Assembly: GCA_025612375.1 (NCBI GenBank)
Contig: JAAXKN010000001.1
Coordinates: forward strand, 1-40,668
DNA length: 40,668 bases
Reading direction: 5' to 3'
DNA from: Ignavibacteria bacterium
GTDB taxonomy: Bacteria; Bacteroidota; Ignavibacteria; Ignavibacteriales; SURF-24
Shown here: positions 8,523 to 29,986 of the stretch, piece by piece
Numbering within the stretch: position 1 is the stretch's first letter
Layout of the letters: each line of letters starts with the position of its first letter
The notes under the pieces: model-generated
What the model was told of the DNA's origin: nothing
The model's input: the letters and a program-made list of their open reading frames with translations, nothing else
The model's database searches: none
Program-made: the position numbers and the translations under genes

Positions 8523-10130
8523 TCACTTAATCAGTAGGAGCTTTTTAACCGCCGTAAATTCACCTGCCTCAAGCCTGTAGAAGTATACACCCGTCGGCAT
8601 GCCGGATGCATCAAATTCCACGTGATAATTCCCTGCCGTCTTGTCCTGGTTTTCAAGTACTTTTACCTCGGTGCCCAGAACGTCATAAATTGCCAGCTTT
8701 ACCCTCGTGTCCCTGGGTAAAAAGTAGCTTATTGTAGTTGTCGGGTTAAAAGGATTAGGATAGTTCTGCGACAGGCTGAACTGCTTAACCATCGATTTTT
8801 CTGCCGTTAATGCCGCAATGGAGGATGTGTATTGAATGTCTACAACCGAGGCCTGCGGAATCGTCAGCCTGCTTTTCCCGTTATTGTAATACATTGTAAT
8901 GTCAGTCATTGCTGGCGCCCAGGCGCCGTTATTCCAGACCAGGTATTCTCCGTGTGTGGCATTGCCGTTAATGTCATAGGTGTAATTAAGCGTGTTGTAA
9001 TTCATCCACGCTCCTTTGTCATTTAACTCCCAGAGACTCTTTAGAAGATTCCCTTTTGTATCGTAAGTATCAGTATTTCTGGCATAAGTTACCCATGAGG
9101 TGTCCCCCCAGAGCTCCCACGTATCTGTCAGCATTTTGCCCGTTGTATCATAGGTGTATTTGTCTCTCGAGTAGTTCACCCAGGCTCCGTTCTGCCATTC
9201 CTCGGAAAGGTAAGAATCCAGGTTATTCTTGCTGTCGTAGGTATATGTATAGCGGCTGGTGTTAACCCAGGCACCATTCTGCCATTCTTCCGAAAGGTAT
9301 GTCAGCATGTTGTTGTTATTGTCATACGTCATCGTAATCCTTTCGACATTTACCCACGCGCCGTTCTGATACTGTTCCGCCAGATATGTCAGCATGTTAT
9401 TATTTTTGTCGTACGTCATCGTATACCTGTCGTTATTCATCCAGGCGCCGTTCTCAAACTTTTCATAAAGGTATGTCAGCATGTTGCCGCTGTTGTCATA
9501 TGTCATCGTAATACGGTCTACATCCACCCAGGCGCCGTTTGTCCATTCCTGGTAGAGGTCCGAAAGCCTGTTGCCGCTGTTGTCATAAGTATAAGTAAGC
9601 TTCCAGTAATTTTCCCAGGCATTATTCTTCCAGGCCTCTGAAAGCTGTGAAAGAGGGTTATTCATATTGTCGTATGTATAGGTAAATCTGTAGTATTTCA
9701 CCCATGCTCCGTTGTCAAAAATCTCCCATAGTTCTGTTAGAGGCATATTCTTGCTGTTGTACGTGTATGTGTACCTGTCATAATTAAACCAGATTCCGTT
9801 TGCCTTAATTTTTATTATCGCCACAGCTACGTTACCGCTGTCATCATAGGTATATGTGGTCCTTAGGGAGTCGTCAACTGTTATCTCTTTCGGATGGTAG
9901 GTGGTATCCAGTTTACCTGCTTTCAGATTCTTGTCCCTCAGCCTCTGCACTATCCCTTCAGTCAGGTTATAAGGTAAAATCCTGTGTGTTGTCGGCTTTA
10001 GAACGAGTTTTGCGGTTTCTGTGCGGTGGGGCTTTACAACTTTACCGGGCACCCTTTCAGTAACGGTCTGCGGAACAACAATTCCGGCTAAAAAGAAGAA
10101 AAGAATTAAAGACTGAAAAAACTTTTTCAT
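8523..10130 (-). CDS. T9SS surface protein with eleven 29-residue repeats (copy A)
   Basis: Secreted protein of 535 residues. A signal peptide covers about 1-20 and a spacer reaches residue 90. Eleven consecutive repeats of exactly 29 residues each run from 91 to 409, and the last ~85 residues form a T9SS type A sorting domain (QNYPNPFNPTTTISY, then GVYFYRLEAGEF and a terminal KLLLIK). Each repeat follows the pattern YTYD..GN.L..L.E.W.NGAW....R, with aromatic residues at positions 1, 3, 5, 19 and 24. It is reminiscent of YD/RHS repeats but longer and strictly periodic. The protein should be exported, then anchored or released at the cell surface by the Por/T9SS machinery. No enzymatic motif is seen. 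A paralogue with the same repeat number lies at 13357-14958. Confidence 0.9.
   Translation of the reverse strand: MKKFFQSLILFFFLAGIVVPQTVTERVPGKVVKPHRTETAKLVLKPTTHRILPYNLTEGIVQRLRDKNLKAGKLDTTYHPKEITVDDSLRTTYTYDDSGNVAVAIIKIKANGIWFNYDRYTYTYNSKNMPLTELWEIFDNGAWVKYYRFTYTYDNMNNPLSQLSEAWKNNAWENYWKLTYTYDNSGNRLSDLYQEWTNGAWVDVDRITMTYDNSGNMLTYLYEKFENGAWMNNDRYTMTYDKNNNMLTYLAEQYQNGAWVNVERITMTYDNNNNMLTYLSEEWQNGAWVNTSRYTYTYDSKNNLDSYLSEEWQNGAWVNYSRDKYTYDTTGKMLTDTWELWGDTSWVTYARNTDTYDTKGNLLKSLWELNDKGAWMNYNTLNYTYDINGNATHGEYLVWNNGAWAPAMTDITMYYNNGKSRLTIPQASVVDIQYTSSIAALTAEKSMVKQFSLSQNYPNPFNPTTTISYFLPRDTRVKLAIYDVLGTEVKVLENQDKTAGNYHVEFDASGMPTGVYFYRLEAGEFTAVKKLLLIK
8904..9860 (-). repeat. Eleven tandem 87-bp coding repeats (copy A)
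   Basis: The repeat region of the surface protein is an in-frame array of eleven 87-bp units encoding 29 residues each. The central units (about 9160-9600) are the most alike at DNA level, suggesting recent duplication or conversion. The final unit (NATHGEYLVW) is divergent and shared with the paralogue, so it probably caps the fold. Confidence 0.85.
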
Positions 10131-10174
10131 AATTAACCTCCTGTCATATTTTATTCATAGTCCTGTCCCTGTTT

Positions 10175-12979
10175 CTACTTGATATAAATCATTTTTTTTG
10201 CGGCAGCATAGTTTCCTGAATGAATGGAATAAAAGTAGATGCCGCTGGATAATCTTTTTAAGCTTTCGCCGTTAAATCTTATTGCGTATTCACCCTGATC
10301 CTTGTAGTCATTTAATAAAGTACTTACCTCCTTTCCATTGGTGTCGTATACCTTCAGAGTCACATGGCCCGCCTGCGGAAGACTGAAACGTATTACTGTC
10401 TCAGGATTAAATGGATTAGGATAATTCTGGAACAGCTCGAATTTTCCCGGAGCCGTATTGTTTTCTTTAGCCAGCCCTTTATTTCCTCCGGTGAATTCAC
10501 CTGCAAATATCCCCCGGCCATGCGTCCCGGCTGCTATTTTGCCGTCTGATTTTCTTGATGTGATAAAATTAACTATTGTGTTTCCTATTTCATTCTCCCC
10601 TTCCTGAGTCCAGAAAGTGTTCTCTCCATCCATTTTCATGCTTGCAAAGACGCCGATGCTGGTTGCAACAAGATATACAGCCCCGTTATTTACAGGCAGA
10701 ATGGAGGCACCCCTTAAGGAAGGTCCCGGAAGCCTGGCCTCACCGGCAAGGTTTCCTTCAACTGCCGAATAAGTCGCACCTCCGTTGGAAGAATAATAGA
10801 GGCCTATGATATTGTAATTAGACATTACCACCAGTATCTCATTTCCGTTATCAGGGTTGACACATATGTGATGTATATAAGATCCTGCGGGCGCCCCCGG
10901 AATGGGTATTTCCCTGGCGCCTGAAGTTGCCCCCTGTGAATTTTCAAGCTTGTAAACCTTCGGTTTTTCGTAATAGGAGAATGCCGCGCAGTAAATGGTA
11001 CTGGAAGGGTTGTTCCTTGAAACTGCCAGTGCCGTAATCTTATACCTTTCCGGAATATGAAATGCCGTCATCTTCTCCCATCCCTGCATCGTCCCTGCTA
11101 CATAATCCGGCAGGCTGCTTATCTGCCTGTTTCTCCAAATTACGTTTCCTGCAGGATAGTAAATTACATCTTCATTGCTGGGATCCACGCCAAAAGGATC
11201 AATAAAGAGCTGATTTTGTGCATCCATGGGGTAAATCAACGACCAGTAGCCTTCGTCTGGCTTTCCTTCTGCTGTATAGCGGTAGCGGATCAGGCGCCCT
11301 TCCTGCGAAGAAACAAAAGCGAACTTTTTCCCCAGATATGCCCAGCTGCCGTCGCCGGAGCTTTCATCTGTTGATTTAGAAGTAACATTCCCGTCAAACG
11401 TAAAATATGGCGAACCGTTATCCTGCGTTCCGCCTACTATTCTGTTGTCATTTGCCCGCTCGGAAATTGTAACCATATAAAACTGCGTAACGTTATAGCT
11501 GTTGTTCTTATTCTCCCAAGGGAAAAATTCCGCGTAGAGAATATTGGTTATATCTGAAGTGTAGCTGAGCCCTCCATCGTGGCCCACCCAGACTTTTTTG
11601 GGATCCGCAGGATCGAATGCAAATGCGTGTATGTCGGGATGTAGCCCCGGATAAAACATCCAGCCATTTGGTATCTGATGATACCCTCCGATCCAGTGTA
11701 TCCTCCTGTTGTTAGGCTTTGATGCAAAGCCGTTCATCGTGCGGAAAAGACTTGTGGCCCCAATAATTACCAGGTTCTCATCATCAGGCTTTACTCCAAG
11801 CGTAAGATTGTAGCAGCCCTGAGTTAGTATTACCCCGTTATAATCCTTGTTGAAATCGGGCAGATTTCCTGACCTGTCTTCATTTGCCCCGGTCTTAAGA
11901 TTCATCTTATAAAAACGCATGTCATCTTTTCCGTCAACCGTCTGCCCCGTGTCGGTGAGTATATAGATTATATCCGGGTTTGATGGAGCTGCTGCTATCA
12001 CAGAGCGCCTGTGTGAGGAGGGAAATGTGGAAGGAGTAATTTTAACCCAGCTTGAGCCTTCATCAGTCGACTGATATACCCCCGGCTCATTCTTTGAAAC
12101 ACTTCCCAGAAACCCCGAAGAAATCACAGCAACAAGTACTCCCCCTGGTGTTTCAGCCACGTCACTGTATTCATGCTCTCGCGGCCCTCCCAGTATGCTG
12201 GAGAACGTAATTCCTCCATCTGTTGAACGCAAAAGTCCGAAGCCCGCAGTAGCTATAATAATGTTCCCTTTTTGAGTCACTATTATCTTTATGCAAAAAT
12301 CAAAATAATTCCAGTCTGTAAAGTTATTGTCCCTCGTGGACTCCAGCACGAACCAGCTTTCGCCCTTGTCAGTCGATTTATATACCCCTGTGCCCGAAAA
12401 CATTGCATAAGGCGCACAGGCCGAAGTAAAGGGATATTCTCCGCACACATAGTACCAGTTATTGGTATAGCCCGCACGCCTGTCCTGTGCTATTGAGGTA
12501 ACGCTTAAGACCTGCTCGGCAGTACTTTTAATCTTCCACGAAGTACCGTTGTCGGTGGATTTCCACATACCGCCTGAAACTCCTCCGGCTAGAATTGTGT
12601 TCGGGTTTGTCACGTCTATTGCCAGCGCCCTGGTTCTTCCGCCTACATCGTTGGGCCCTGCCTCCTTCCAGTTAAATAACTGAGCCGTCTTACCAAGGCC
12701 GGCAGCATTTTTTTTCAGAACTTTTGCAAATTCCAGCTCCCTCTGCCTTATGGCTCCCGGTATCTGATTGGTTGCAGGATCTCTTAGCATCATGAAAAAA
12801 TATTCAGCCCGCCCTTTTTTTTGTTCCACCGTTCCCTTTGGAGAGGAGGTTGATTTTACTTTTCCGGGCCGCGTCTTTTGGGAACGGTTTTGATTGTCAT
12901 TTAACTCAGTGGAAAAAGTCAGTAAAAGAAACACGATCAGGACGCCTAAGGCTATGATCCTCTTTTTCGGCATTCTCAC
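10175..12979 (-). CDS. VPS10/sortilin-like propeller protein with T9SS sorting domain
   Basis: Secreted protein of about 935 residues. After an N-terminal hydrophobic segment (IIALGVLIVFLLLTF) come repeated blades of the BNR/sortilin type, recognisable by STDNGTSW, STDKGESW, STDGGITF, STDEGSSW and SSNGGATY. The C-terminal ~85 residues are a T9SS type A domain (QNYPNPFNPETVIRF, then GIYFYSIHSG and KKMIYIK). BNR propellers of this type occur in secreted glycan-active or binding proteins, but no catalytic residues can be named here. Start choice: AGGAGGTGG lies 7 bases before a GTG at 12979 and 13 bases before an ATG at 12973. The upstream ATG at 13027 has AGGAG directly abutting it, which is unfavourable. 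It lies between the two 29-residue-repeat paralogues. Confidence 0.88.
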   Translation of the reverse strand: MRMPKKRIIALGVLIVFLLLTFSTELNDNQNRSQKTRPGKVKSTSSPKGTVEQKKGRAEYFFMMLRDPATNQIPGAIRQRELEFAKVLKKNAAGLGKTAQLFNWKEAGPNDVGGRTRALAIDVTNPNTILAGGVSGGMWKSTDNGTSWKIKSTAEQVLSVTSIAQDRRAGYTNNWYYVCGEYPFTSACAPYAMFSGTGVYKSTDKGESWFVLESTRDNNFTDWNYFDFCIKIIVTQKGNIIIATAGFGLLRSTDGGITFSSILGGPREHEYSDVAETPGGVLVAVISSGFLGSVSKNEPGVYQSTDEGSSWVKITPSTFPSSHRRSVIAAAPSNPDIIYILTDTGQTVDGKDDMRFYKMNLKTGANEDRSGNLPDFNKDYNGVILTQGCYNLTLGVKPDDENLVIIGATSLFRTMNGFASKPNNRRIHWIGGYHQIPNGWMFYPGLHPDIHAFAFDPADPKKVWVGHDGGLSYTSDITNILYAEFFPWENKNNSYNVTQFYMVTISERANDNRIVGGTQDNGSPYFTFDGNVTSKSTDESSGDGSWAYLGKKFAFVSSQEGRLIRYRYTAEGKPDEGYWSLIYPMDAQNQLFIDPFGVDPSNEDVIYYPAGNVIWRNRQISSLPDYVAGTMQGWEKMTAFHIPERYKITALAVSRNNPSSTIYCAAFSYYEKPKVYKLENSQGATSGAREIPIPGAPAGSYIHHICVNPDNGNEILVVMSNYNIIGLYYSSNGGATYSAVEGNLAGEARLPGPSLRGASILPVNNGAVYLVATSIGVFASMKMDGENTFWTQEGENEIGNTIVNFITSRKSDGKIAAGTHGRGIFAGEFTGGNKGLAKENNTAPGKFELFQNYPNPFNPETVIRFSLPQAGHVTLKVYDTNGKEVSTLLNDYKDQGEYAIRFNGESLKRLSSGIYFYSIHSGNYAAAKKMIYIK

Positions 12980-13027
12980 AATTCCACCTCCTCTTTGGCT
13001 AAATTGCTGGAAATAAAAGCGGAACAT

Positions 13028-13356
13028 CTCCTGAAGAATCTGCTTTTTTTTGCTTTTTATGTGACTGATCTCTGGTTATTATAAGGAAAGGCGTATAAAT
13101 AGCGGCAATTTGGATTTTGAGAAGTGAAAAGTGCAAAGAAGTCCTGCGACCTCTTGTGGTACGTCTCCGCCTCTAACCTCACATAAAATAAGTCAGACTT
13201 CAGAATGACTTCAATTCAGGTTTGAATAATTATATATTTTTCCCAAAATGAAGTCAAGGATAAAGGAAGTATAAACTAACCTTTATGTATGTGAGATTGC
13301 TTTCGGCATCTAAAGCGGCCTTTTTTTAAGTAAAAGCTTCATTAACTCTTTTTATC
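13028..13356. other. Gene-free interval, about 330 bp
   Basis: Both flanking genes are on the minus strand, so this holds the end of the copy B transcript and the leader of the propeller gene. It is AT-rich. The one weak structure is GCTTT/AAAGC around 13299-13315, followed on the plus strand by a T run (13321-13327). It would only work as a terminator for plus-strand transcripts, of which none are evident. No small ORF with a ribosome-binding site was recognised. Confidence 0.45.
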
Positions 13357-14958
13357 TTACCTGATGAGTATAAGCTTCTTAACGCCCGTAAAATCGCCTG
13401 CTTCCAGTTTGTAGAAATAAACACCGCTGGGCATACTTCCTGCATCAAACTCTGCGGTGTAGCTGCCCGCAGACTTGAAAGAATTTTCCAGTACTTTAAT
13501 TTCCCTTCCCAGTATGTCATAGACCGATAACTTTACTTTGCTCTCATGCCCGATTGAGTAGCTTATCTGAGTTGCCGGATTGAAAGGATTAGGATAGTTC
13601 TGCAAAAGGCTGAACTCTCTAAAGTAAAGTTTTCCCCCTGCAATGCCTGCCAGAATGGAATTATACTGGACTTCGGCAACAGAGGCCCCTTCAAAGGTCA
13701 TATTATCATGTTTTTTGTTGTAGTACATGATAAGACTGCCTTTTGAAAGCTTCCAGGCTGTATAATCCCACATTAAGTATTCACCATGCGTGGCATTGCC
13801 GCTGGCGTCATAAGCATAGTTATATGCGCTGAAGTTTACCCATATATCATTAAGCCGGTACTCCCAGAGGTCGGTTGTCATATTGCCCATGGGGTCATAT
13901 GCGCGAGTATTCTTCCCGTAAAGGCTCCATGCATTATTTTCAAACTCTTCTGTAAGAGCCGAGAGCATATTGCCCCATTCGTCATAGCTGTATGTAATCT
14001 TCCAGGCTTCCAGCCAGCTGCCGTTTTTCCATTGCTGGCTTAATAAGGTTTCCAGCCTGCCGGAATTTTCATAAGTATAGGAATTTCTGTTTACGAATTC
14101 CCAGCTGCTGTTTTTCCATTCTGAGGATACATAGCTGATCACGTTACCTGCTGCATCATATTCGTAGGTGTACATGTTTACATTCTCCCAGCTGAAGTTC
14201 CTGTATTCCTGGATCAGATATGTAAGCATGCAGCTCTTGGCGTCATAGGTAAAAGTATAATAACTTATGTTAATCCAGTTTCCGTTTTTCCACCCCTCCG
14301 AAAGGTAAGAAAGCATATTGCTTTTAATGTCGTACGTATATGTATATCTGCTGTAGCCCATCCAGTTTCCATCAATCCATTCCTCAGAAACATAGGTAAG
14401 CATGTTCCCATTGCCGTCATAAGTGCATGACGTCCTGAAAGAATTTTCCCATGCATTGTTTTTCCACTGCTGAGAAAGAGATGTAAGCACGTTTCCTTTG
14501 TCGTCATAAGTATATGTCAGCTGTCTTTGGTTTTCCCAGGCTTCGTTTTTCCAGATTTCCCGGAGTTCCTGCTGAAGATTCCCAAAGCTGTCATAGCTGT
14601 ATCTCTGCCTTTCAACAATTGCCCAGTGCCCGTAGGGCTTGCTTTCTGAAAGAAATGCAACCAGGCTGCCGCCTTCGCCATAGGTGTAAGTATGTCTTAG
14701 CGAGTCATCAATTACAACGAGTTTAGGCCTGTAGAAACTTGAATCCCTCTTTCCCGTTTTTAAGGCCCTATACTCCTGCGGCAGCTTTAGAGGATTAACT
14801 TCAGGCGGACTTACGGGTCTTATAGCCCCCGGGTCCTTTTTTTGACATTTCCCCCACTGCTCTATAAGGAGGCTTTGCATGCCTGCATAATGACTTTGTG
14901 CCATTACCGCTCCGGCAAAGGAGAATAAGAGTATCAGGCACTCCAAAAACCTTTTCAT
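13357..14958 (-). CDS. T9SS surface protein with eleven 29-residue repeats (copy B)
   Basis: Paralogue of the protein at 8523-10130, 533 residues, with the same plan. The signal peptide is about 1-20 (cleavage near VMA|QS) and a spacer ends in DDSLR. Eleven repeats of exactly 29 residues occupy 89-407, and the T9SS sorting domain has QNYPNPFNPATQISY, GVYFYKLEAGDF and KLILIR at the end. Repeats again carry YTYD..GN near the start and W at positions 19 and 24, but the two proteins differ at most other positions, so the duplication is not recent while repeat number and period are preserved. AGGAGG stands seven bases before the ATG. Function unknown; a surface adhesin or structural role is an inference from architecture. 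Confidence 0.9.
   Translation of the reverse strand: MKRFLECLILLFSFAGAVMAQSHYAGMQSLLIEQWGKCQKKDPGAIRPVSPPEVNPLKLPQEYRALKTGKRDSSFYRPKLVVIDDSLRHTYTYGEGGSLVAFLSESKPYGHWAIVERQRYSYDSFGNLQQELREIWKNEAWENQRQLTYTYDDKGNVLTSLSQQWKNNAWENSFRTSCTYDGNGNMLTYVSEEWIDGNWMGYSRYTYTYDIKSNMLSYLSEGWKNGNWINISYYTFTYDAKSCMLTYLIQEYRNFSWENVNMYTYEYDAAGNVISYVSSEWKNSSWEFVNRNSYTYENSGRLETLLSQQWKNGSWLEAWKITYSYDEWGNMLSALTEEFENNAWSLYGKNTRAYDPMGNMTTDLWEYRLNDIWVNFSAYNYAYDASGNATHGEYLMWDYTAWKLSKGSLIMYYNKKHDNMTFEGASVAEVQYNSILAGIAGGKLYFREFSLLQNYPNPFNPATQISYSIGHESKVKLSVYDILGREIKVLENSFKSAGSYTAEFDAGSMPSGVYFYKLEAGDFTGVKKLILIR
13738..14694 (-). repeat. Eleven tandem 87-bp coding repeats (copy B)
   Basis: In-frame array of eleven 29-codon units in the copy B surface protein, the same number and unit length as in copy A. 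Units here are more divergent from each other than in copy A. The last unit again contains NATHGEYL followed by W. Confidence 0.85.
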
Positions 14959-21440: not shown

Positions 21441-22670
21441 TTACTCGTACCTCAGAGCTTCAATAGGATCTAAGTTTGATGCTTTTATAGCAGGGTAAAC
21501 CCCGAAGACGAGGCCTACGGCAGAGGTAACAATAAGCCCTACAGCAATCCAGAAGACGGGAACAACAACTGATGCCTTAAGAAGAACTGCAATTATATTA
21601 CCCCCTATGAGCCCCAGAATTATGCCGGAGATTCCGCCTAAAAGACTTAAAACCGTTGCCTCTGCAAGGAACTGAAACCGGATAGTATTTTTCTGAGCCC
21701 CTATAGCCTTGCGTATACCGATCTCTCTTGTCCTTTCGGTCACGCTTACAAGCATAATGTTCATAATGCCTATTCCTGCTGCAACAAGTGCTATAAAGGC
21801 CACAACTCCGGCGCCGACCCTGAAATACTTCGTGATGTCATTAAACTGCGAGATCAGCTGGCTGTTTGTTACAATTTCAAAATCATTTTCTTCTCCCGGT
21901 GATACCTTGCGGATTGTCCTGAGCGCCCCGATCACCTGATCCATGGTAGCCTGGTAGCGCTTGTTGTCGGGAGCCTGTATATTAAACTCGGCCGATGACC
22001 TGTCGCCGTAATACTTCGTAAATACAGAAATCGGAATAATAAGGAAGTTATCCTGGCTTTGACCCAGCACGCTCCCTTTTTCCTTAAAGCGCCCTATCAC
22101 CTCAAGCCTCATGTTATCCACAGTAACTTTCTGTCCTATGGGGTCAATCGACTTAAAGAGTTTCTTTACGATATCGTTACCGATAACGCATACGTTTCTG
22201 GCGTAAAGCATATCCTGCCTTGAAAAACCGCGCCCGTCGTCAATTACATAGCTCGAAGTCGTAAACTCGTCATTGTTAACGCCCACCATGTAAACATTAG
22301 GGTTTGTAGCCTCTTTGTTATACTTTACCATGCGGCTTCCCTGCCCTAGGGAAATTCCTACTGCAACCGGAAGATTGGTCATTTCTTTTAACTTCTCCCC
22401 CTGCTCTACCGTCAGGTCCTTCCTGTTGCGGTACTTCATCCAGGCGCCGTGCCCGGTCTGTATGGCAGGATACTTCTGCACTATGATATTGTTTGTCCCT
22501 ATGTCGTTAAAGGCGTCTTCAAACGTCCCTTGAATGGCTGAAATTGCAGTCATAACAATTATGATCGAGAAAAGCCCTATGGCTATTCCAACCAGCGTCA
22601 GAATAGAACGGGTTTTGTTGCTCCTGAGAGAGTTTAACGCCATTATTATGCTTTCATATATCTGTACCAA
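21441..22670 (-). CDS. MacB/FtsX-type ABC permease, B type (pair 2)
   Basis: Inner-membrane permease of 409 residues with the MacB layout lacking a fused ATPase. One N-terminal helix (about 22-46) is followed by a large periplasmic domain (about 47-280) and three C-terminal helices. The cytoplasmic coupling segment reads ERTREIGIRKAIGAQ and the C-terminus ALRYE. Its periplasmic features (RNRKDLT, GEENDFEI) match the permease at 24095-25327 rather than its neighbour, so I class both as B type. It starts 12 bp after the A-type partner stops and is last in the operon. The ATPase would have to be supplied by the gene at 26582-27307. Confidence 0.9.
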   Translation of the reverse strand: MVQIYESIIMALNSLRSNKTRSILTLVGIAIGLFSIIIVMTAISAIQGTFEDAFNDIGTNNIIVQKYPAIQTGHGAWMKYRNRKDLTVEQGEKLKEMTNLPVAVGISLGQGSRMVKYNKEATNPNVYMVGVNNDEFTTSSYVIDDGRGFSRQDMLYARNVCVIGNDIVKKLFKSIDPIGQKVTVDNMRLEVIGRFKEKGSVLGQSQDNFLIIPISVFTKYYGDRSSAEFNIQAPDNKRYQATMDQVIGALRTIRKVSPGEENDFEIVTNSQLISQFNDITKYFRVGAGVVAFIALVAAGIGIMNIMLVSVTERTREIGIRKAIGAQKNTIRFQFLAEATVLSLLGGISGIILGLIGGNIIAVLLKASVVVPVFWIAVGLIVTSAVGLVFGVYPAIKASNLDPIEALRYE

Positions 22671-22682
22671 CTTTCCCCCTCA

Positions 22683-23930
22683 TTATTCATATCTTAAAGC
22701 TTCAACAGGATTCATCTTGGAAGCCTTGTAGGCAGGCAGGAATCCCGATACTACTCCAACCAGTGCGGCAATGAAAAACGATATCAGCACAATGTTCAAA
22801 GGCATTGAGGTCGGAATAAACTGATTAATTATAAGGCTTACAGGAAAAGCCAGAATAATCCCTATGGCTCCTCCTATCATGCATATGATTGCGGCTTCGG
22901 CAAGGAACTGCAGAAGAATGGACCACGTCTTGGCCCCTATGGCTTTTCTTATACCTATCTCCTTGGTCCTTTCCTTGACTGAAACGAACATAATGTTCAT
23001 AATTCCAATTGCACCGACAAAAAGCGACAAAGCCGTTATTACAAGCCCTGCAATTGCAACCGTACCGATTATCTTGTCGTACATCTGCGTAAAGGCTTCC
23101 TGCTGGTTGATTGCAAAGTCATCAGTTTTGTTGGAGGGGACTTTTCTTATTGCGCGCATAATATCCCGGATCTCTTCCTTAACTTCGGGCATTTTGTTTA
23201 TGTCTTTAACCTTTACGTTAATCCTGAAGGAGTCCCTCCTGGGTCCGAAGGCTTTCTTGAAGACTCCGATCGGCATAATTACCTGCCCGTCCATGCTGAA
23301 GGAACCTAAAAATCCGCTTCCCTGCTTTTCCAGCACACCTATTACCCTTAAGGGGATTCCGTTTAGTTTTATCATTTTATTTATCGGATCTTCATTTGGG
23401 AACAGGTTGTCCACAATGTCCTGCCCAATAATGCAGACTTCGTGATTTGACTTCTCCTCAAAGTCTGTCATAAATCTTCCCGTAGCTGGAAAGGTTCCGG
23501 TGGTTTTTATGTAATCGGCCGTAGTGCCCCAGATGATAGTTGTTGTTGCGCTCTTTTCCTTGTATTTGGCCGTTGCCCCGAAGCTTCTCAGGTTTGGAAC
23601 AACTACTTCAACCGAAGGAACCGATGCCAGCTGCGCCTTTAGCTTTTCGTACTGGTCCATTGTAATATCCCGCCTGTTTCTCTGCAGGTGCCAGTCCTCG
23701 CCGCTGAACCATTCGAATTTCTCCACAAAAAGGACGTCAGAGCCTATTGAAGCAATCGACTGTATAAAGGAATTCTTTAAGCCTGTAATTGCTGTGGACA
23801 TAATTGTTACAGCGAAAATGCCTATTACAATTCCCAGAGTAGTCAAAATTGAGCGCATCTTGTTCGCTCTGATTGCTCTGAGGGAAATAATTACACCCTC
23901 TTTTACATCCACCAGAAAGTGCTTAAACAT
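22683..23930 (-). CDS. MacB/FtsX-type ABC permease, A type (pair 2)
   Basis: Inner-membrane permease of 415 residues with one N-terminal and three C-terminal helices around a periplasmic MacB-like core. It matches the permease at 25327-26562 feature by feature: an aromatic EKFEWF...EDW stretch followed by RNRRDITM, then FVGAIGIMNIMFVSV, ERTKEIGIRKAIGAK, INQFIPTS and MNPVEALRYE. It is therefore the A-type member of the second pair. A terminator-like hairpin lies just upstream (24029-24058), so pair 2 may be transcribed at a lower level than pair 1 or from a promoter in 23931-24028. Confidence 0.9.
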   Translation of the reverse strand: MFKHFLVDVKEGVIISLRAIRANKMRSILTTLGIVIGIFAVTIMSTAITGLKNSFIQSIASIGSDVLFVEKFEWFSGEDWHLQRNRRDITMDQYEKLKAQLASVPSVEVVVPNLRSFGATAKYKEKSATTTIIWGTTADYIKTTGTFPATGRFMTDFEEKSNHEVCIIGQDIVDNLFPNEDPINKMIKLNGIPLRVIGVLEKQGSGFLGSFSMDGQVIMPIGVFKKAFGPRRDSFRINVKVKDINKMPEVKEEIRDIMRAIRKVPSNKTDDFAINQQEAFTQMYDKIIGTVAIAGLVITALSLFVGAIGIMNIMFVSVKERTKEIGIRKAIGAKTWSILLQFLAEAAIICMIGGAIGIILAFPVSLIINQFIPTSMPLNIVLISFFIAALVGVVSGFLPAYKASKMNPVEALRYE

Positions 23931-24028
23931 AAATAGATCTGCTTATTTTAATGTTAGTTGTAAATATCGGTCTTAAAATATAGTTTTGCCCTGAAAAAAC
24001 AAAACTATTATGTTTCATGAAAAAGACA

Positions 24029-24062
24029 AGGTAAAGCACCGCTAAAAGTGCTTTACCTCTTT
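24029..24062. terminator. Internal hairpin between the two permease pairs
   Basis: AGGTAAAGCAC (24029-24039) pairs perfectly with GTGCTTTACCT (24048-24058) around an 8-base loop. T-rich sequence follows on both strands (TCTTTTTT on plus, TTGTCTTTTT on minus). In the direction of the operon it should terminate, wholly or partly, after permease pair 1. Confidence 0.75.
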
Positions 24063-24094
24063 TTTGTGTGCATACTTAAATTACCAGGCAGCCA

Positions 24095-25327
24095 TTATTC
24101 GTATCTCAGTGCCTCAATAGGGTCTAAATTTGCGGCTTTGTAGGCTGGATAAGTCCCAAATGTTATTCCGATGGCAAGACATACTATTACACCTGTCAGT
24201 ACAGACATGATTGGAAAAGTCGGCGTCGCCTTTAAGAGGAGCCCGGCAAGGTTGCCTATCCCGACTCCGAACAGAATTCCTATTATGCCTCCGGAGACGG
24301 ACAAGACAACAGCTTCAAATAAAAACTGTATCAGTATATTTTTCTTCTGCGCCCCGATGGCTTTTCTGACCCCGATCTCTCTCGTCCTTTCAGTCACGCT
24401 CACAAGCATAATATTCATAATGCCCACGCCTGCAGCAAGAAGCGCAATTGCGGCAATTACCATTGCCCCTATCTCGGCCCCCTGCTTAATGCCGTTAATA
24501 GTCTGCATTACGGTCTCGTTCGAGAATATTTCAAAATCGTTCTCTTCTCCTGCCCCTACCTTCCTTATCGTGCGCATGTAGCCTACTGCCGATTCAATCG
24601 TCTGGTCGTATGTATCCTTTCCGCGCGACATGACTGTAATGTTGATGCTGTTATTTGTCTTTCCGTAAAAACTCTGGTATGCCGTTATAGGCATTACAAC
24701 AAAGTTGTCGCGGCTCTGTCCGAACATCTCACCCTGCGATTCATAAACCCCTATTACCTGGAGCTTCTTCCCGTCAACTCTTATATACTGCCCGATCGGA
24801 TCGACAGACGTGAAAATCTTTTTTGCGACGTCTTTACCAACTACACAAACGCGGCTGTAGTGCTCAACGTCGGAGTTGTTTATTGCCCTTCCATCCTCAA
24901 CAACCCACTTGTTGTTCGGCTGAGCCTCGGGTGTAATTCCGGAGATCTGTACGTTGGGATTTGTCTCAATACTTTCGTACTTAACTATCTTCCCGAAATT
25001 CCACTGCTCAGCTCCCACGTACTCAGCTATTGTCAGAAGATCCTTAAGTCTGTAATACTCCTCAAGCGTAAGATCCTTCCTGTTCCTGAATTTATCACGC
25101 GAACCCGGGCCACCTTCCTGCATGGCCGGAAACTTTTGTATCTGGAATGTATTCTGCCCCAGCATGGAAGTGCCTTCTTCAATGCTGTTCTGCAGCATTG
25201 CTATAACCGTGCTTATGGAAATTATGGAAAATATACCTACCACAATGCCGAGTATTGTTAGAAACGACCTTAACTTATTTACCTTTAAGGCATTGAATGC
25301 AACGAGAAATACTTCCTTGATCTTCAT
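24095..25327 (-). CDS. MacB/FtsX-type ABC permease, B type (pair 1)
   Basis: Permease of 410 residues, the same type as the one at 21441-22670: RNRKDLT, GAGEENDFEI, AAGVGIMNIMLVSVTERTREIG, RKAIGAQ and a LDPIEALRYE end. Its ATG overlaps the stop codon of the preceding A-type gene by one base (TAATG), so translation of the two is probably coupled and a 1:1 product ratio likely. Topology is one plus three membrane helices with a periplasmic domain of about 240 residues, as in MacB-type mechanotransmission exporters. Confidence 0.91.
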   Translation of the reverse strand: MKIKEVFLVAFNALKVNKLRSFLTILGIVVGIFSIISISTVIAMLQNSIEEGTSMLGQNTFQIQKFPAMQEGGPGSRDKFRNRKDLTLEEYYRLKDLLTIAEYVGAEQWNFGKIVKYESIETNPNVQISGITPEAQPNNKWVVEDGRAINNSDVEHYSRVCVVGKDVAKKIFTSVDPIGQYIRVDGKKLQVIGVYESQGEMFGQSRDNFVVMPITAYQSFYGKTNNSINITVMSRGKDTYDQTIESAVGYMRTIRKVGAGEENDFEIFSNETVMQTINGIKQGAEIGAMVIAAIALLAAGVGIMNIMLVSVTERTREIGVRKAIGAQKKNILIQFLFEAVVLSVSGGIIGILFGVGIGNLAGLLLKATPTFPIMSVLTGVIVCLAIGITFGTYPAYKAANLDPIEALRYE

Positions 25328-26562
25328 TATTCATACCTCAATGCTTCCACAGGATCCATCTTCGCGGCAGAATACGCGGGCGCGAAACCTGAAATTACCC
25401 CTGTAATTAGTGAAATACCTATTGCAAGAACGACTGCATCGGCCTGAAAGGAAGTAGGCAGAAACTGGTTTATTATTTTACTCAAAATAACGGCTCCTAT
25501 AAGGCCTATCAGACCGCCTAAAAGGCAGAGCACTACGGCTTCAGTTATAAACTGCCCCAGTATCGTCCTTTTTTTGGCCCCTATTGCCTTACGGATACCA
25601 ATTTCCTTGGTTCTTTCCTTTACAGAAACAAACATGATGTTCATAATTCCTATTGCGCCAACAAAAAGCGCAAGCCCCGTAATTATGAGCCCTACAATCT
25701 GTATTATACCAACCGTGCTGTCGTATATCTTGGTCAGGCCCTGCTGCTGATTAATTGAAAAGTCGTCTTCCTGGTGATATGCCAGGCCTCTTACCTTCCT
25801 CATTATCCCCTGGGCTTCCTCAACCGTCTTTTCTATCATCGCCGTATTTGCCACGCGGGCTACAATTGTCACGCTCCTGAAGTGCTCACTCTGAAAATAC
25901 TTGAAAACGTTCCCGATCGGAAGGTACACCTGCTTATCCGGATTCATGCTTCCAAGCATGAAGCTCCCCTGCTCGGCAAGCACTCCAATTACTTTGAACT
26001 TCTGCCCTTTGATCTTTATTGTCTGATCAATGGCATCACCCCTGGGGAAAAGGATCTTCGCAACGTCACTTCCCAGAACCACAACGTTCCTGTTCCCGCG
26101 GCTTTCAACGTCGTTAAAGAACCTTCCCTGGCTGAAAGTAAAGTTCGTTGTACCCAGATAATCATTTGTGGTTCCGGTCAAAATGGTGGACTCGGTTGTA
26201 ATTGCGCCGCTTTTCAGCGTTTGAGCCGTCCAGACCTGCGGCGCAATAGCTACGGGGAGCTTTGCCATTTCCTTGTACTTGGCAAAATCCTCCATCGTAA
26301 TATTCCGCCTGTTCCTGGTCTTCCACCACTCCTCATCCTGGAACCACTTCCATTTATCGATATAAAGGTTATCTGAACCAAGAGCGCTGATGCCATTCTG
26401 GAATGATGTATCTATCCCCTTAATAGCAGTTGACATCAGGACAACCGAGGTTACACCAATAAAGATCCCTATTGCCGTCAAGGCAGAACGGATCTTATTG
26501 GCCTTAATTGCCCTGTATGAAATCGAAAGCCCCTCTTTTAGTTCGAACAAAAAATTCTTCAT
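25327..26562 (-). CDS. MacB/FtsX-type ABC permease, A type (pair 1)
   Basis: Permease of 411 residues. Membrane helices lie at about 25-47, 284-313, 341-365 and 375-397. The periplasmic core spans 48-283 and opens with a tryptophan-rich stretch (70-80) before RNRRNITM. The coupling segment ERTKEIGIRKAIGA is at 316-329. It is the first permease after the ATPase gene (19 bp) and overlaps the B-type partner by one base. The pattern of one separate ATPase plus different A and B permeases suggests a heterodimeric transporter, unlike E. coli MacB, which is a homodimer with a fused ATPase. Confidence 0.91.
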   Translation of the reverse strand: MKNFLFELKEGLSISYRAIKANKIRSALTAIGIFIGVTSVVLMSTAIKGIDTSFQNGISALGSDNLYIDKWKWFQDEEWWKTRNRRNITMEDFAKYKEMAKLPVAIAPQVWTAQTLKSGAITTESTILTGTTNDYLGTTNFTFSQGRFFNDVESRGNRNVVVLGSDVAKILFPRGDAIDQTIKIKGQKFKVIGVLAEQGSFMLGSMNPDKQVYLPIGNVFKYFQSEHFRSVTIVARVANTAMIEKTVEEAQGIMRKVRGLAYHQEDDFSINQQQGLTKIYDSTVGIIQIVGLIITGLALFVGAIGIMNIMFVSVKERTKEIGIRKAIGAKKRTILGQFITEAVVLCLLGGLIGLIGAVILSKIINQFLPTSFQADAVVLAIGISLITGVISGFAPAYSAAKMDPVEALRYE

Positions 26563-26581
26563 ATCGCTTCTTTGCTTTCTT

Positions 26582-27307
26582 TTATTGGTTGACAGTAAAT
26601 TTACGCCCGTTCGGTATGTACCTGTTCTTTACGGGCTCGTCACGTTCAATTAAACCGTCCTTGATCCTGATAATTCTTGCGGCATGCTCTGCAATGTATT
26701 CCTCATGCGTTACAAGAATAATTGTATTACCCTGCAGATAAATTTCATTGAACAAGGTCATGATGTCTTCACCTGTCTTTGAATCCAGGTTGCCCGTAGG
26801 CTCGTCGGCCAGTATGATTGCAGGCTTTGTCACCAGTGCGCGCGCAATAGCTACCCTCTGCCTTTGTCCGCCCGAGAGCTCGTTCGGCTTGTGGTGGATT
26901 CTGTCCTCAAGGCCCACATTGATGAGTGCCTCTTTTGCCCTTTCCTTTCTTTCCTGTGAGGGAACCCCGGCATAGATGAGCGGAAGTTCAACGTTATGAA
27001 GCGCATCGGACCTGGGAAGAAGGTTGAATGTCTGGAAGACAAAACCGATCTCCCTGTTTCTCACCTTTGCCAGGTCGTTGTCTGTCATCTGGCTTACGTT
27101 AACTCCCTTGAAATCATATATGCCGCTTGTCGGCGTATCCAGGCATCCCAGCATATTCATCAAAGTCGATTTGCCTGACCCCGAAGGGCCCATTATGGCT
27201 ACATATTCATTCTTGTCTATCTTTATCGATATATCCCTTATAGCATGAACTTCTTCTGTACCAACCTGATATACTTTGCTGATATGTTCAATGTTTATTA
27301 TATTCAT
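26582..27307 (-). CDS. ABC transporter ATPase, MacB/LolD type
   Basis: Nucleotide-binding subunit of 241 residues with all motifs intact: Walker [10 protein letters not shown] at 40-48, Q-loop Q92 in [11 protein letters not shown], signature LSGGQ at 144-148, Walker B ILADEP with D168 and E169, D-loop near 175 and switch H201. It belongs to the LolD/MacB/FtsE class that drives four-helix permeases. It is the only ATPase in the operon although four permease genes follow, so it probably serves both pairs. The gene lies 28 bp after the adaptor gene. Confidence 0.95.
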
Positions 27308-27335
27308 TTTATATCCGATTCTTTAATTGCTTTAT

Positions 27336-28616
27336 TTATTTAGCGCCTTTGCCTGCGCCTTCAACCCTTACGTTTGAATTCTCTGCCAGTTCGCGTGAAA
27401 TGGCCCTGTATGAACCGCTTACAACCTTTTCATTGCCGGTAAGTCCGCTTATGATTTCAATGTAGTTGTCGTCGCTTATACCGGTCTTAACCTCTTTCAT
27501 CTTGGCCTTGTTGTTTTCAATTACAAATACAACTTCCTTCGGCTTCTTGTCCTTGATCTTATCGTTCTTAACCTGGATGGGGCCGCTGTCTTCACCCTCT
27601 TTCTTCACTTCAGGAGCCTTGTTGCCCCTGGCTGTTACGCTCTGAATCGGAACGGAAAGTACATTATTCTTTGTTTCGGTTTCAATGTCTGAGTTGCAAG
27701 ACATTCCGGGCCTGATGCTGTTGTCGGTATCGGTAAGCCTGATCTTTATTTCAAAGTTTACCACTTCCTGCTGCGTGCCTTCAGCCGTTGTCTTTGCGCT
27801 GTTGCCTATCTGTGAGACAACTCCCTTGAACTCTTTGTTTCCAAAGGCATCTATCTGAATCTTTGCAGTGTCGCCGAGCGAAACCAGCACCACGTCGTTT
27901 TCATCAACTTCAACCGTTGCTTCCATCTTCGAGAGGTCGGCAACCGTCATGATGTTTGTACCCTGGCTGAAGCCCGAACCAAGCACCCTTTCACCAAGCT
28001 CAACGTTGAGCTGGCTAATGGTGCCGTTCATCGGAGAATAAATAGTCGTCTTGTATAGGTTCTCCTGTGCTTCCTTGAGAGCTGCCTGGAACTGGGCTAC
28101 AGATGACTTCTGTGAATCGAAATCGCTCTGTGCGCTCAGGAAATTTGACTTTGACTGCTCCAGCTCGGCGTCACTTGAAAGCTTCTTCCTGTAGAGCTCC
28201 TGAATTCTCTTATAATCAGCAGCTACCTTGTCTAAGACCGCCTTGCTCCTCTGCAGCCCGGCCTTTGCGCTTTCAAGCGTTGCGGCTGCCCTGTCGCGCG
28301 CTGCCATGTATGTATCAGGCTTTATTTTTATAAGCAGCTGACCTTTCCTTACAATGTCACCTTCCTTCACAGGAAGTTCAACAATCTCTCCGGTTACTTC
28401 GGGAGTTATTATTACCTGGTACTCAGGGTTAATTTTTCCTGTGGCAGATACCCTCTGTGTAATATTTCTTTTCTGTACAGATTCTGTCTGTACGGGAATG
28501 ATCTGCTCTTTGTTACCGCTGAAGACGAGCAGTAAGACCAGGACAGTCACCATGAGCCCTATTCCGCTGAAAATATAAATTTTCTTCCTGGATTTCTTTT
28601 TGTTTCCGTTTGCCAT
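27336..28616 (-). CDS. MacA/HlyD-like periplasmic adaptor
   Basis: Membrane-fusion protein of 426 residues. An N-terminal anchor helix (about 13-33) precedes a half lipoyl motif around 73-95, and an alpha-hairpin coiled coil (about 100-190) is rich in Ala, Lys, Gln and Ser. The second lipoyl half and beta-barrel (about 190-310) follow. The membrane-proximal domain is interrupted by a charged Lys/Glu-rich insertion near 330-355. The adaptor should bridge the inner-membrane permeases and the TolC channel. A gap of 23 bp separates it from the tolC-like gene and GGGAG precedes the start. The charged insertion is not usual for MacA and may be a flexible loop. Confidence 0.93.
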   Translation of the reverse strand: MANGNKKKSRKKIYIFSGIGLMVTVLVLLLVFSGNKEQIIPVQTESVQKRNITQRVSATGKINPEYQVIITPEVTGEIVELPVKEGDIVRKGQLLIKIKPDTYMAARDRAAATLESAKAGLQRSKAVLDKVAADYKRIQELYRKKLSSDAELEQSKSNFLSAQSDFDSQKSSVAQFQAALKEAQENLYKTTIYSPMNGTISQLNVELGERVLGSGFSQGTNIMTVADLSKMEATVEVDENDVVLVSLGDTAKIQIDAFGNKEFKGVVSQIGNSAKTTAEGTQQEVVNFEIKIRLTDTDNSIRPGMSCNSDIETETKNNVLSVPIQSVTARGNKAPEVKKEGEDSGPIQVKNDKIKDKKPKEVVFVIENNKAKMKEVKTGISDDNYIEIISGLTGNEKVVSGSYRAISRELAENSNVRVEGAGKGAK

Positions 28617-28639
28617 TGAATTATCTCCCTTGCAATAAA

Positions 28640-29986
28640 TTATTCAAATTTTTTATAATCTAATATACCCAAATAGTATTCCAGCTGTGATTTCAGCCTG
28701 TAGAAATCAAACCTGTTATTGATGTTCGTCTGCAGAGCAAGTGTATAGTTTGAGCTTGCAAGCAGAAGGTTGACAAATGTACCTGATCCTATGTTGTACT
28801 TTTCCTGTTCAATCTGGCGGTTCTGCTGTGCAGAAAGGACGTTCTTGGCGCTCACTTCCAGCCTTTTCTGTGCCGCCTGAAAATCCAGGTATGTTTTCTT
28901 CAGATCAATTTTTATCTGGCGCTCCAGCTCTGTTAATTCAATTTCCCTCGTCTTTGCCTGAACCTTCGAATACTCGACATTGTTTTCAGTGGCCCATCCG
29001 GAAAATATAGGAAGGCTTAAAGTCAGTCCAACCGAATACCCCCTGCTCTTAAAAAGCTCACTCATCGATCCGGCCGTTGATCCGAATGAATTATTGTTCG
29101 ACAGCTGTGGATAATAATACCCTTTTGCTATTGTAATTCCGTTGTTTGCACTCTCTAATCTATATTGTGCGCTCTTATAATCCAGCCTATTATTTAGGGC
29201 ATCTTCAACTGCAGCCCTGATGTTGCTGTACTGGTTTAAGAACTGCTCGCCTTCTAAAACCCTCGTAGTGTCGGTTTCAATCGGGTCAGATATGTTAATC
29301 TCCGACATCACATCCAGCCCTAAGTATGTCATAAGCTGGCTCTGATACGTATCCAGGTCATTTTTAGCCTGAATTAAAGCCAGTTCTGAATTTCCTACGT
29401 TTACCTGCTGGGCATAGACGTCAGCCAGCGTAACAGCACCAAGCTGGTTCCTTTCTGTAAAAATCTCAAGGTTTTTCTTGTTGTAAGCCAAATCATCTTC
29501 CCTGACCTTTAAGACCTGCTTTGCATTTAAGACCAGGTAATAGTCGGCAATTGTATTAAAAACGATATCCTGCTTTACCCTCTCCAAAGACAGGCGGGCA
29601 GCCTCAAGGTCGTTTTCTCTCTGCGAAATTGTGGCAAAGTTTGCCAGACCGTCAAACAAGGTCCACTGCGTCTGTGCCCCTGCCGTGTAGGCACGGCTTT
29701 CCTGGTTGCCCGACCTGAAAACCAGTGTACCTCCCTGAACAAATGTTCCCCCCGGACCCTCTGACCTGTCCCACCTCCAGCTTCCTGAGGCACCAAGGCT
29801 CGGCAAAAGCTGCCCATAGGCTGCCTTTAGGTTCGATTCGTTGGACTTCAGGCTTACAACATTTTTTGCTAATGTAGTATTCTTCTGCAGCGCTATTTTA
29901 ACGGCATCATCCAAAGTTAAACTCTGCTGTGCCTTTGCATTAATGGAAAGAAGAAATATCATCAACAATGAGATATAAAAGCGCAT
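28640..29986 (-). CDS. TolC-family outer-membrane efflux channel
   Basis: Outer-membrane factor of 448 residues with a signal peptide (1-19, AKA|QQ) and two repeats of long amphipathic coiled coils, the usual OEP organisation. LTLDDAVKIALQKN at the mature N-terminus and a second-half helix with QNRQIEQEKYNIGSGTF are typical. It is the first gene of the efflux operon, with AGGAG seven bases before the ATG. Together with the adaptor, ATPase and permeases it would form a tripartite envelope-spanning exporter. The substrate (drug, siderophore, peptide or lipid) is not indicated. Confidence 0.93.
   Translation of the reverse strand: MRFYISLLMIFLLSINAKAQQSLTLDDAVKIALQKNTTLAKNVVSLKSNESNLKAAYGQLLPSLGASGSWRWDRSEGPGGTFVQGGTLVFRSGNQESRAYTAGAQTQWTLFDGLANFATISQRENDLEAARLSLERVKQDIVFNTIADYYLVLNAKQVLKVREDDLAYNKKNLEIFTERNQLGAVTLADVYAQQVNVGNSELALIQAKNDLDTYQSQLMTYLGLDVMSEINISDPIETDTTRVLEGEQFLNQYSNIRAAVEDALNNRLDYKSAQYRLESANNGITIAKGYYYPQLSNNNSFGSTAGSMSELFKSRGYSVGLTLSLPIFSGWATENNVEYSKVQAKTREIELTELERQIKIDLKKTYLDFQAAQKRLEVSAKNVLSAQQNRQIEQEKYNIGSGTFVNLLLASSNYTLALQTNINNRFDFYRLKSQLEYYLGILDYKKFE

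What the first reader, a model, noticed from the sequence alone, without database searches (positions are those of the whole stretch)
8523..14958. Two surface proteins each built from exactly eleven 29-residue repeats
Proteins A and B each contain eleven units, all 29 residues long with no insertion or deletion, between a similar N-terminal spacer ending DDSLR and a T9SS sorting domain. Aromatic residues recur at fixed places (Y at 3 and 5, W at 19 and 24). Conventional YD/RHS repeats are shorter and irregular, so this may be a distinct repeat fold, perhaps a beta-solenoid or long beta-ribbon exposed on the cell. Fixed repeat number despite clear sequence divergence implies that the length matters. 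The last unit (NATHGEYL) is conserved in both and looks like a cap. This is my best candidate for something undescribed.
Basis: partly seen in the sequence, partly recalled or inferred. Interest (0 to 1): 0.72.

Follow-up and report, generated by a model that had tools for sequence, protein, structure and literature searches.

The report
Surface YD-hairpin repeats with variable positions
Two neighbouring exported bacterial proteins are each built from eleven 29-residue beta-hairpins of the known YD/Rhs type, and in their wide family the units share a constant frame but differ at the same few positions, as one would expect of a surface that recognises something.

Summary
In detail: A and B each have eleven 29-residue units with no indel. 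The fold is not new: AlphaFold models give a curved antiparallel hairpin sheet whose best solved matches are Rhs, Tc and teneurin YD-shells and the small Bacteroides domain DUF3836; B also passes Pfam's RHS_repeat cut-off. Eleven is the commonest count but not fixed: 92 flanked arrays have 4-13 units (34 have 11, 4 have more), and other copies in this genome have 11, 10 and 8-9. The set is still a distinct variant: free-standing, no recognised toxin or Rhs core, T9SS tail, a 29- rather than 21-residue unit, near-regular spacing (572 of 705 steps exactly 29). Unexpectedly, units within an array share a frame but differ at positions 1, 14, 16, 18, 27 and 28 nearly as much as units of different arrays do; these sites are rich in Tyr and Ser. 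I read the family as surface recognition or adhesion proteins with a constant frame and variable sites. Ligand binding is inferred; positive selection is not proven.

The parts
8523..10130 (-). Gene A, 535 aa: signal peptide (by eye), spacer, 11 x 29-residue array, cap, T9SS tail
9861..10130 (-). A residues 1-90: signal peptide and spacer; its last strand (mature residues 56-63) is predicted as part of an N-terminal cap hairpin
8904..9860 (-). A array, residues 91-409, eleven 29-residue YD-type hairpin units
8820..8903 (-). A residues 410-437: degenerate half unit, predicted C-terminal cap strands
8535..8762 (-). A T9SS sorting domain (PF18962), residues 457-532
13357..14958 (-). Gene B, 533 aa, same layout; 45% identical to A overall
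13738..14694 (-). B array, residues 89-407, eleven 29-residue units; B passes PF05593 RHS_repeat and TIGR01643
13654..13737 (-). B residues 408-435: degenerate half unit, predicted C-terminal cap strands
13369..13596 (-). B T9SS sorting domain (PF18962), residues 455-530
10175..13027 (-). 950-aa T9SS protein with weak Vps10/BNR similarity between A and B; not part of the repeat family; absent at the syntenic place in the same-genus genome

Best explanation
A and B are members of a large, toxin-less family of YD-hairpin repeat proteins exported by the type IX secretion system. Each 29-residue unit is one beta-hairpin: strand 11-20, a two-residue turn at 21-22 flanked by the W19/W24 pair, strand 23-34 (34 = position 5 of the next unit), then the five-residue YD loop DxxGN. 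Eleven hairpins plus N- and C-terminal cap strands (27 strands in the model of A) form one strongly curved antiparallel sheet. The frame (W24, Y5, W19, D6, N26, loop and turn) is kept, while positions 1, 14, 16, 18, 27 and 28 differ from unit to unit. The most likely use is recognition: a cell-surface adhesin or receptor whose specificity is written by these positions, perhaps for glycans or other cells. Shown by sequence: array, tail, family, constant/variable pattern. Predicted: the fold. Inferred: surface display, ligand binding, and that the sheet makes about one turn of a YD spiral.
For: T9SS tails over cut-off. AF2 models: mature A pLDDT 78.8, pTM 0.63, array blocks 75-95; B array with flanks pLDDT 90.5, pTM 0.77, array blocks 85-97. 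Foldseek: Rhs/Tc/teneurin shells first for both, E 7e-14 to 4e-8. VIA: Rhs core 8qjd Z 13.9, 269 aligned, rmsd 6.9; DUF3836 4r8o Z 9.2, 92 of 98 aligned, rmsd 2.3. Sequence profile to DUF3836 chain 4r03 E 2.2e-5. Variable sites: identity within arrays 0.10-0.13 against 0.07-0.10 between arrays at the six positions, whereas 13, 17, 21, 22 and 23 gain 0.13-0.17 within arrays (86 arrays, 640 units). In the 14 arrays with mean identity over 0.45 the six sites average 0.17 and the rest 0.62; L014 has 0.24 against 0.86. The same six sites come out on top in 27-30 of 30 random halvings of the arrays. Tyr is 15.7% there against 2.0% at eleven other strand positions, a set that leaves out the conserved sites 3, 5, 19, 24 and 26. 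Two close pairs keep the six sites: L028/L068 pN 0.02 with pS 0.31-0.34; L069/L085 0.01 with 0.13-0.18.
Against: No ligand, expression or localisation data. Signal peptides were judged by eye. Positive selection is not shown: the pN/pS of about 4.6 in the youngest unit pairs is inflated by choosing pairs on pS. With pairs chosen on one half of the frame codons, pS of the other half is 0.38-0.45, pN at the six sites 0.56-0.59 and pS of those codons 0.53-0.57, which also fits sites that are merely free. Other close pairs do not keep the six sites, or only as well as chance: L054/L066 pN 0.61 (pS 0.40-0.77), L039 pair 0.56 (0.48-0.58), L092/L088 0.22 (0.25), L092/L031 0.28 (0.24-0.30). The six sites are slightly more alike within than between arrays. 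By strand parity two of them (1, 28) lie on the opposite face from the other four.
Confidence: 0.6

Rival explanations
1. A passive spacer, stalk or coat: the array is a stiff surface sheet whose length and curvature matter, and the six positions are simply unconstrained outward-facing residues without a specific partner.
For: Debiased pN at the six sites is close to pS of the same codons, as for free sites. Several close pairs have pN near pS there. Counts cluster at 8-11 and fall sharply above 11, as for a size-limited structural part.
Against: Loop and turn positions 7, 9, 21 and 22, presumably exposed, are homogenised within arrays while the six strand sites are not, opposite to simple exposure. 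The Tyr/Ser-rich make-up is not that of the other strand sites compared. L028/L068 and L069/L085 keep the six sites.
Confidence: 0.2
2. A fast-evolving target of attack: the protein is a phage receptor or antigen and the variable positions reflect an arms race rather than recognition by the protein itself.
For: The A array is 61% identical to its syntenic same-genus relative while five neighbouring proteins are 70-92%. L054/L066 have nearly identical tails (pN 0.02, pS 0.21) but six-site pN 0.61.
Against: Conserved six sites in L028/L068 and L069/L085. The variation falls on the same frame positions in unit after unit and across arrays. Array dN/dS of A against its relative is low (0.06), though pS is saturated.
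Confidence: 0.12
3. A small Rhs-like shell that carries or delivers a toxin.
For: Fold and motif relationship to Rhs and Tc shells; RHS_repeat over cut-off in B.
Against: No Rhs core or toxin domain was matched in A or B by Pfam or NCBIfam; the array is followed by a T9SS tail; 27 strands in the model of A against 76 in RhsA. The genome has a separate, irregular YD protein with a DHLGS motif near its end (that this marks an Rhs core is recalled).
Confidence: 0.05
4. A new repeat fold (beta-solenoid or other), unrelated to YD repeats.
For: The 29-residue period and the Trp pair are not those of canonical YD repeats; TM-scores to whole shells are low; VIA Z values stay near the level at which repeats can match by common arrangement.
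Against: DSSP shows antiparallel hairpins; YD shells lead every fold list; B passes PF05593 and TIGR01643, and L027 passes PF12930.
Confidence: 0.03

Closest known systems
YD/RHS repeats (PF05593, TIGR01643) in Rhs effectors, Tc toxin BC shells and teneurins
   Same: YxYDxxG motif; one hairpin per repeat; curved antiparallel sheet (consensus and hairpin from passages of PMC6297184 and PMC6425310)
   Different: Unit of 29 residues with a W19/W24 pair and GN rather than GR; regular spacing; no recognised core or toxin domain; T9SS tail; about one third of the strands of RhsA (76 strands, three turns; passages of PMC8765631)
DUF3836 (PF12930; solved 4r03, 4r8o) and the solved protein 3msw (BF3112), from Bacteroides and Parabacteroides
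   Same: Same hairpin with YxYD...W...W; 4r8o 92 of 98 residues at rmsd 2.3, 3msw 130 of 139 at rmsd 5.2; L027 passes PF12930 with 48.5 bits, cut-off 25
   Different: Solved chains of 98-139 residues, not arrays: the unit profile finds one unit in three of four DUF3836 loci and none in the fourth; two residues longer between the Trps in the units seen; no T9SS tail was looked for there
Porin-like Bacteroides proteins 4ghb and 3tzg
   Same: Curved antiparallel sheets, Z 7.6-8.2
   Different: Weak match (rmsd 6.2-9.0); relation not tested by sequence
Repeat scaffolds with constant frame and variable positions (TAL effectors, ankyrin-type binders, lamprey receptors; recalled, no call)
   Same: Near-identical units that differ at fixed positions
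   Different: Unrelated folds; binding is known there and only inferred here

Membership tests
YD/RHS repeat proteins | Match to the curated repeat models | tested here: met
   B: PF05593 30.5 bits (cut-off 22), TIGR01643 19.2 (15.8). A does not reach it: PF05593 15.7 as a whole protein, 19.9 for the array alone. 14 of 25 family members match PF05593 at E <= 0.01
YD/RHS repeat proteins | Beta-hairpin per repeat in a curved antiparallel sheet | tested here: met
   Predicted models only and fold matches
YD/RHS repeat proteins | Repeat of about 21 residues, irregular | tested here: not met
   572 of 705 steps are exactly 29 in 81 complete proteins; TIGR01643 is 42 positions for two repeats
Rhs/Tc toxins | Rhs core domain and C-terminal toxin | tested here: not met
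   No core or toxin match in A or B by Pfam or NCBIfam; T9SS tail at the C-terminus
DUF3836 | PF12930 gathering score (25 bits) | tested here: inconclusive
   L027 48.5, met; B 22.7 or 27.1 with its neighbours in the frame; A 11.1
DUF3836 | Fold of solved members | tested here: met
   4r8o Z 9.1-9.2, 4r03 Z 8.4-8.7, on predicted models
T9SS type A cargo | C-terminal sorting domain | tested here: met
   PF18962 45.6 and 44.0 bits, cut-off 27; TIGR04183 45.7 and 47.3, cut-off 23
T9SS type A cargo | Export to the cell surface | not testable with these tools
   Signal peptide judged by eye; no localisation data
Diversity-generating retroelement target | Reverse transcriptase near the variable gene | tested here: not met
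   One RVT_1 match in the genome, on contig C65, not on C1, C3 or C30, which hold the arrays

The most novel reading that the evidence does not exclude
The family is a modular recognition scaffold: a roughly one-turn YD-hairpin sheet displayed by T9SS, in which duplication and conversion keep the frame constant while about six Tyr/Ser-rich positions per unit (about 66 in an 11-unit array) write a specificity that orthologues preserve. Eleven is preferred because, with the caps, it completes about one turn of the spiral (76 strands in three turns in RhsA gives about 25 per turn; 27 strands in the model of A).
Probability: 0.3. Interest if true: 0.75.

Novelty: new variant of a known kind. Interest (0 to 1): 0.55.

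Why it matters
YD repeats are known mainly as toxin shells and as the teneurin scaffold. A common, toxin-less, secreted family with regular units would show the fold used as a free-standing surface module, would give DUF3836 a context, and offers a natural repeat frame with variable positions that could be read, and tested for binding, unit by unit.

Tried and rejected
Fixed count of eleven as a hard rule: rejected. The count is nevertheless inherited to a degree: on a tree of the part after the array (89 rows, few columns, many open forks) it changes at least 41 times, against a mean of 49 and a minimum of 42 in 200 shuffles, and of the eleven pairs most alike in this part (identity 0.77 or more) ten have equal counts; the most alike pair differs by one unit (L054 11, L066 10). 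Eleven versus other changes 24 times (shuffled mean 27, minimum 20), no better than chance.

Strict positional orthology of units: strong for A against the same-genus protein (0.61 same position, 0.43 other; p 0.0002), weak for A against B (0.42, 0.36; p 0.017). Over all 36 pairs of nine proteins, 16 have p under 0.05 without correction, mostly with small excesses, and 20 do not.

Positive selection by dN/dS: the first estimate was rejected as biased after the split test; in the biased set 17 of 19 arrays had six-site pN above pS. Synonymous change between A and its same-genus relative is saturated.

Diversity-generating retroelement: no reverse transcriptase match on the array contigs; contig C65, which has one, shows no direct repeat of 60 bases or more; base make-up of codons at the six sites is close to that at the rest.

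Neighbourhood as a clue to function: cytochrome bd genes, a response regulator and outer-membrane proteins, not informative. The 437-541 extra residues after the array in L026, L027, L055 and L052 gave no Pfam domain before the tail (L026 was not scanned). Plasmid search gave two weak matches at 26-30% identity. Other Pfam names that matched some members (for instance LytB_SH3 in 5 of 25) were taken as low-complexity or aromatic-repeat matches and not followed.

Fold lists: OspA, a flat sheet, is listed with one row at rmsd 22.8 (235 aligned) and one at 6.4 (122 aligned); large barrels are at rmsd 8.5-10.2. I take this as a curved sheet, but it is weak evidence.

Literature: searches showed no paper on this 29-residue family in the listings seen; DUF3836 gave 0 papers. 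The library lacks most subscription journals, and no bioRxiv preprints are held. Papers were seen as passages only (PMC6425310, PMC3482391, PMC6297184, PMC8765631).

Full report
What is there. A (8523-10130, minus) and B (13357-14958, minus) each hold eleven 29-residue units without indels, far above shuffled expectation. Both have a T9SS sorting domain over the curated cut-offs and a similar spacer ending DDSLR. Between them lies a 950-aa T9SS protein with weak Vps10/BNR similarity. In the same-genus genome G001 the syntenic place has a single array protein with 11 units, 58% identical to A and 43% to B, between orthologues of the response regulator and of the 1173-aa protein. So the window's A + propeller-like protein + B either arose by duplication and insertion or was reduced in G001.

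Family. With a profile of the two arrays, 54 of 96 genomes searched (this one included) have a match at E <= 0.001, in 34 of 52 genera. With a ten-row profile, 34 of 395 genomes drawn from the phylum match at E <= 1e-10, with at most five first-look candidates scored in each. The named relatives are an Ignavibacteriales MAG with two adjacent 11-unit genes (L039) and a Bacteroidales MAG (L040, 6 units). This genome has at least five array genes: A, B, two on contig C3 and one on C30.

Counts. I scored units with a profile made from 409 exact 29-mers and a chaining script. The sample is the loci fetched, not all matches. Of 105 non-redundant family frames (score at least 100 and at least 4 units), 92 have at least 36 residues before and 75 after the array: 4 units in 1, 6 in 2, 7 in 5, 8 in 14, 9 in 11, 10 in 21, 11 in 34, 12 in 2, 13 in 2; 13 frames were dropped as cut or short-flanked. 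L084, L122 and L130 are counted among the 92 though they lack the YPNP/FPNP tail motif. Degenerate end units can be missed, so counts can be one too low (the C30 gene scores 8 and 9). In the 81 frames passing a stricter completeness test, 572 of 705 steps are exactly 29. Eleven is thus the mode with a sharp fall above it, not a constant.

Fold. AlphaFold2 on mature A with a four-row alignment gave block pLDDT 75-95 over the array and poor confidence in the first 54 residues. The B array with flanks gave pLDDT 90.5 and pTM 0.77. Each unit is strand 11-20, turn 21-22, strand 23-34, loop 6-10. Foldseek put Rhs, Tc and teneurin shells first for both models. VIA gave Z 11.9 at best for A and 13.9 for B, with rmsd mostly 4-7, and DUF3836 structures at rmsd 2.3-4.0 over 92-99 residues. 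The tool warns that Z under about 13 for repeats may mean a common arrangement; here sequence supports the relation: RHS_repeat and YD_repeat_2x over cut-off in B, PF12930 over cut-off in L027, profile hits to 4r03 (2.2e-5) and 4r8o (0.0012), with YenC2 only at 0.06. TM-scores to whole shells are low (0.05-0.48), as expected for a part against a whole of different curvature, but they are no proof of the overall shape.

About one turn. RhsA has 76 strands in three turns (passages of PMC8765631), about 25 per turn by my division, although some of these strands belong to plug and core. The model of A has 27 strands from residue 56 to 414. That eleven units plus caps make about one turn is a hypothesis; I had no coordinates to measure closure.

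Constant frame, variable sites. Over 86 arrays with 640 exact units, identity between units of one array exceeds identity between arrays most at 7, 9, 12, 13, 17 and 20-23 (by 0.09-0.17), while positions 1, 14, 16, 18, 27 and 28 stay near the between-array level (0.10-0.13 against 0.07-0.10); strongly conserved sites such as 5, 19 and 24 also gain little, because they are alike everywhere. In the 14 arrays with mean identity over 0.45 the six sites average 0.17 and the rest 0.62; in L014 the values are 0.24 and 0.86, and its consensus reads as a fixed frame with holes. The six positions were first picked from these data and then came out on top in 27-30 of 30 random halvings of the arrays, using unit pairs with pS under 0.3. 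They hold 15.7% Tyr and 13.3% Ser, against 2.0% and 7.0% at eleven other strand positions chosen without the conserved sites 3, 5, 19, 24 and 26. By strand parity 14, 16, 18 and 27 share one face and 1 and 28 lie on the other (inference).

Selection. Young unit pairs gave pN 0.488 at the six sites against pS 0.106 (16 pairs, 5 arrays) and 0.559 against 0.241 (88 pairs, 19 arrays). Choosing pairs by pS biases this: with pairs chosen on half of the frame codons, the other half has pS 0.38-0.45 and pN 0.21-0.26, and the six sites have pN 0.56-0.59 with pS 0.53-0.57. So the six sites diverge between units at about, or somewhat above, the synonymous rate, while the frame is constrained. Ten close pairs were compared (some are paralogues; six-site pN, then the range of pS at the six sites and the rest): kept in L028/L068 (0.02; 0.31-0.34) and L069/L085 (0.01; 0.13-0.18); below pS in A/G001 (0.32; 0.71-0.76, saturated), L026/L055 (0.36; 0.52-0.63) and L078/L079 (0.27; 0.43-0.48); ambiguous in L026/L027 (0.12; 0.03-0.19); near pS in L092/L088 (0.22; 0.25), L092/L031 (0.28; 0.24-0.30) and the two L039 genes (0.56; 0.48-0.58); and diverged in L054/L066 (0.61; 0.40-0.77). 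The tail value of L069/L085 in that call is an artefact of a cut contig end.

Reading. A surface recognition or adhesion protein is the best account of an exported array with a fixed frame and Tyr/Ser-rich variable sites. RHS repeats have been proposed to bind carbohydrates (passage of PMC3482391) and the teneurin shell is thought to bind heparin (passage of PMC6425310). A passive structural sheet with free outward sites remains the main rival.

Noticed in passing
window 10175-13027 (-): 950-aa T9SS protein with weak Vps10/sortilin and BNR similarity (PF15902 29.2 bits, cut-off 33) between A and B; missing at the syntenic place in the same-genus genome.
   Followed up: partly
G000 whole genome: At least 150 matches to the T9SS C-terminal tail in one 5.2-Mb genome (150 of 210 candidates were scored).
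   Followed up: no
L105 (G000 contig C94): A large YD/Rhs-type protein of about 1000 aa with irregular spacing of the YD motif in the same genome, a natural comparison for the regular arrays.
   Followed up: partly
L136 (G000 contig C65, 6682-7374): The one RVT_1 reverse transcriptase match of the genome lies about 2.5 kb from a T9SS tail; no direct repeat of 60 bases or more on the contig, so no sign of a diversity-generating element.
   Followed up: partly
L026, L027, L055, L052: Array proteins of 845-1042 aa with 437-541 residues after the array; the three scanned with Pfam (not L026) show no domain there before the T9SS tail.
   Followed up: partly
window 35239-37143 (-): Protein kinase domain fused to YCF48/PSII_BNR-type repeats.
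   Followed up: no
window 21441-29986 (-): Cluster of MacB/FtsX-type permeases with an ABC ATPase, an HlyD-type adaptor and an outer-membrane efflux protein.
   Followed up: no
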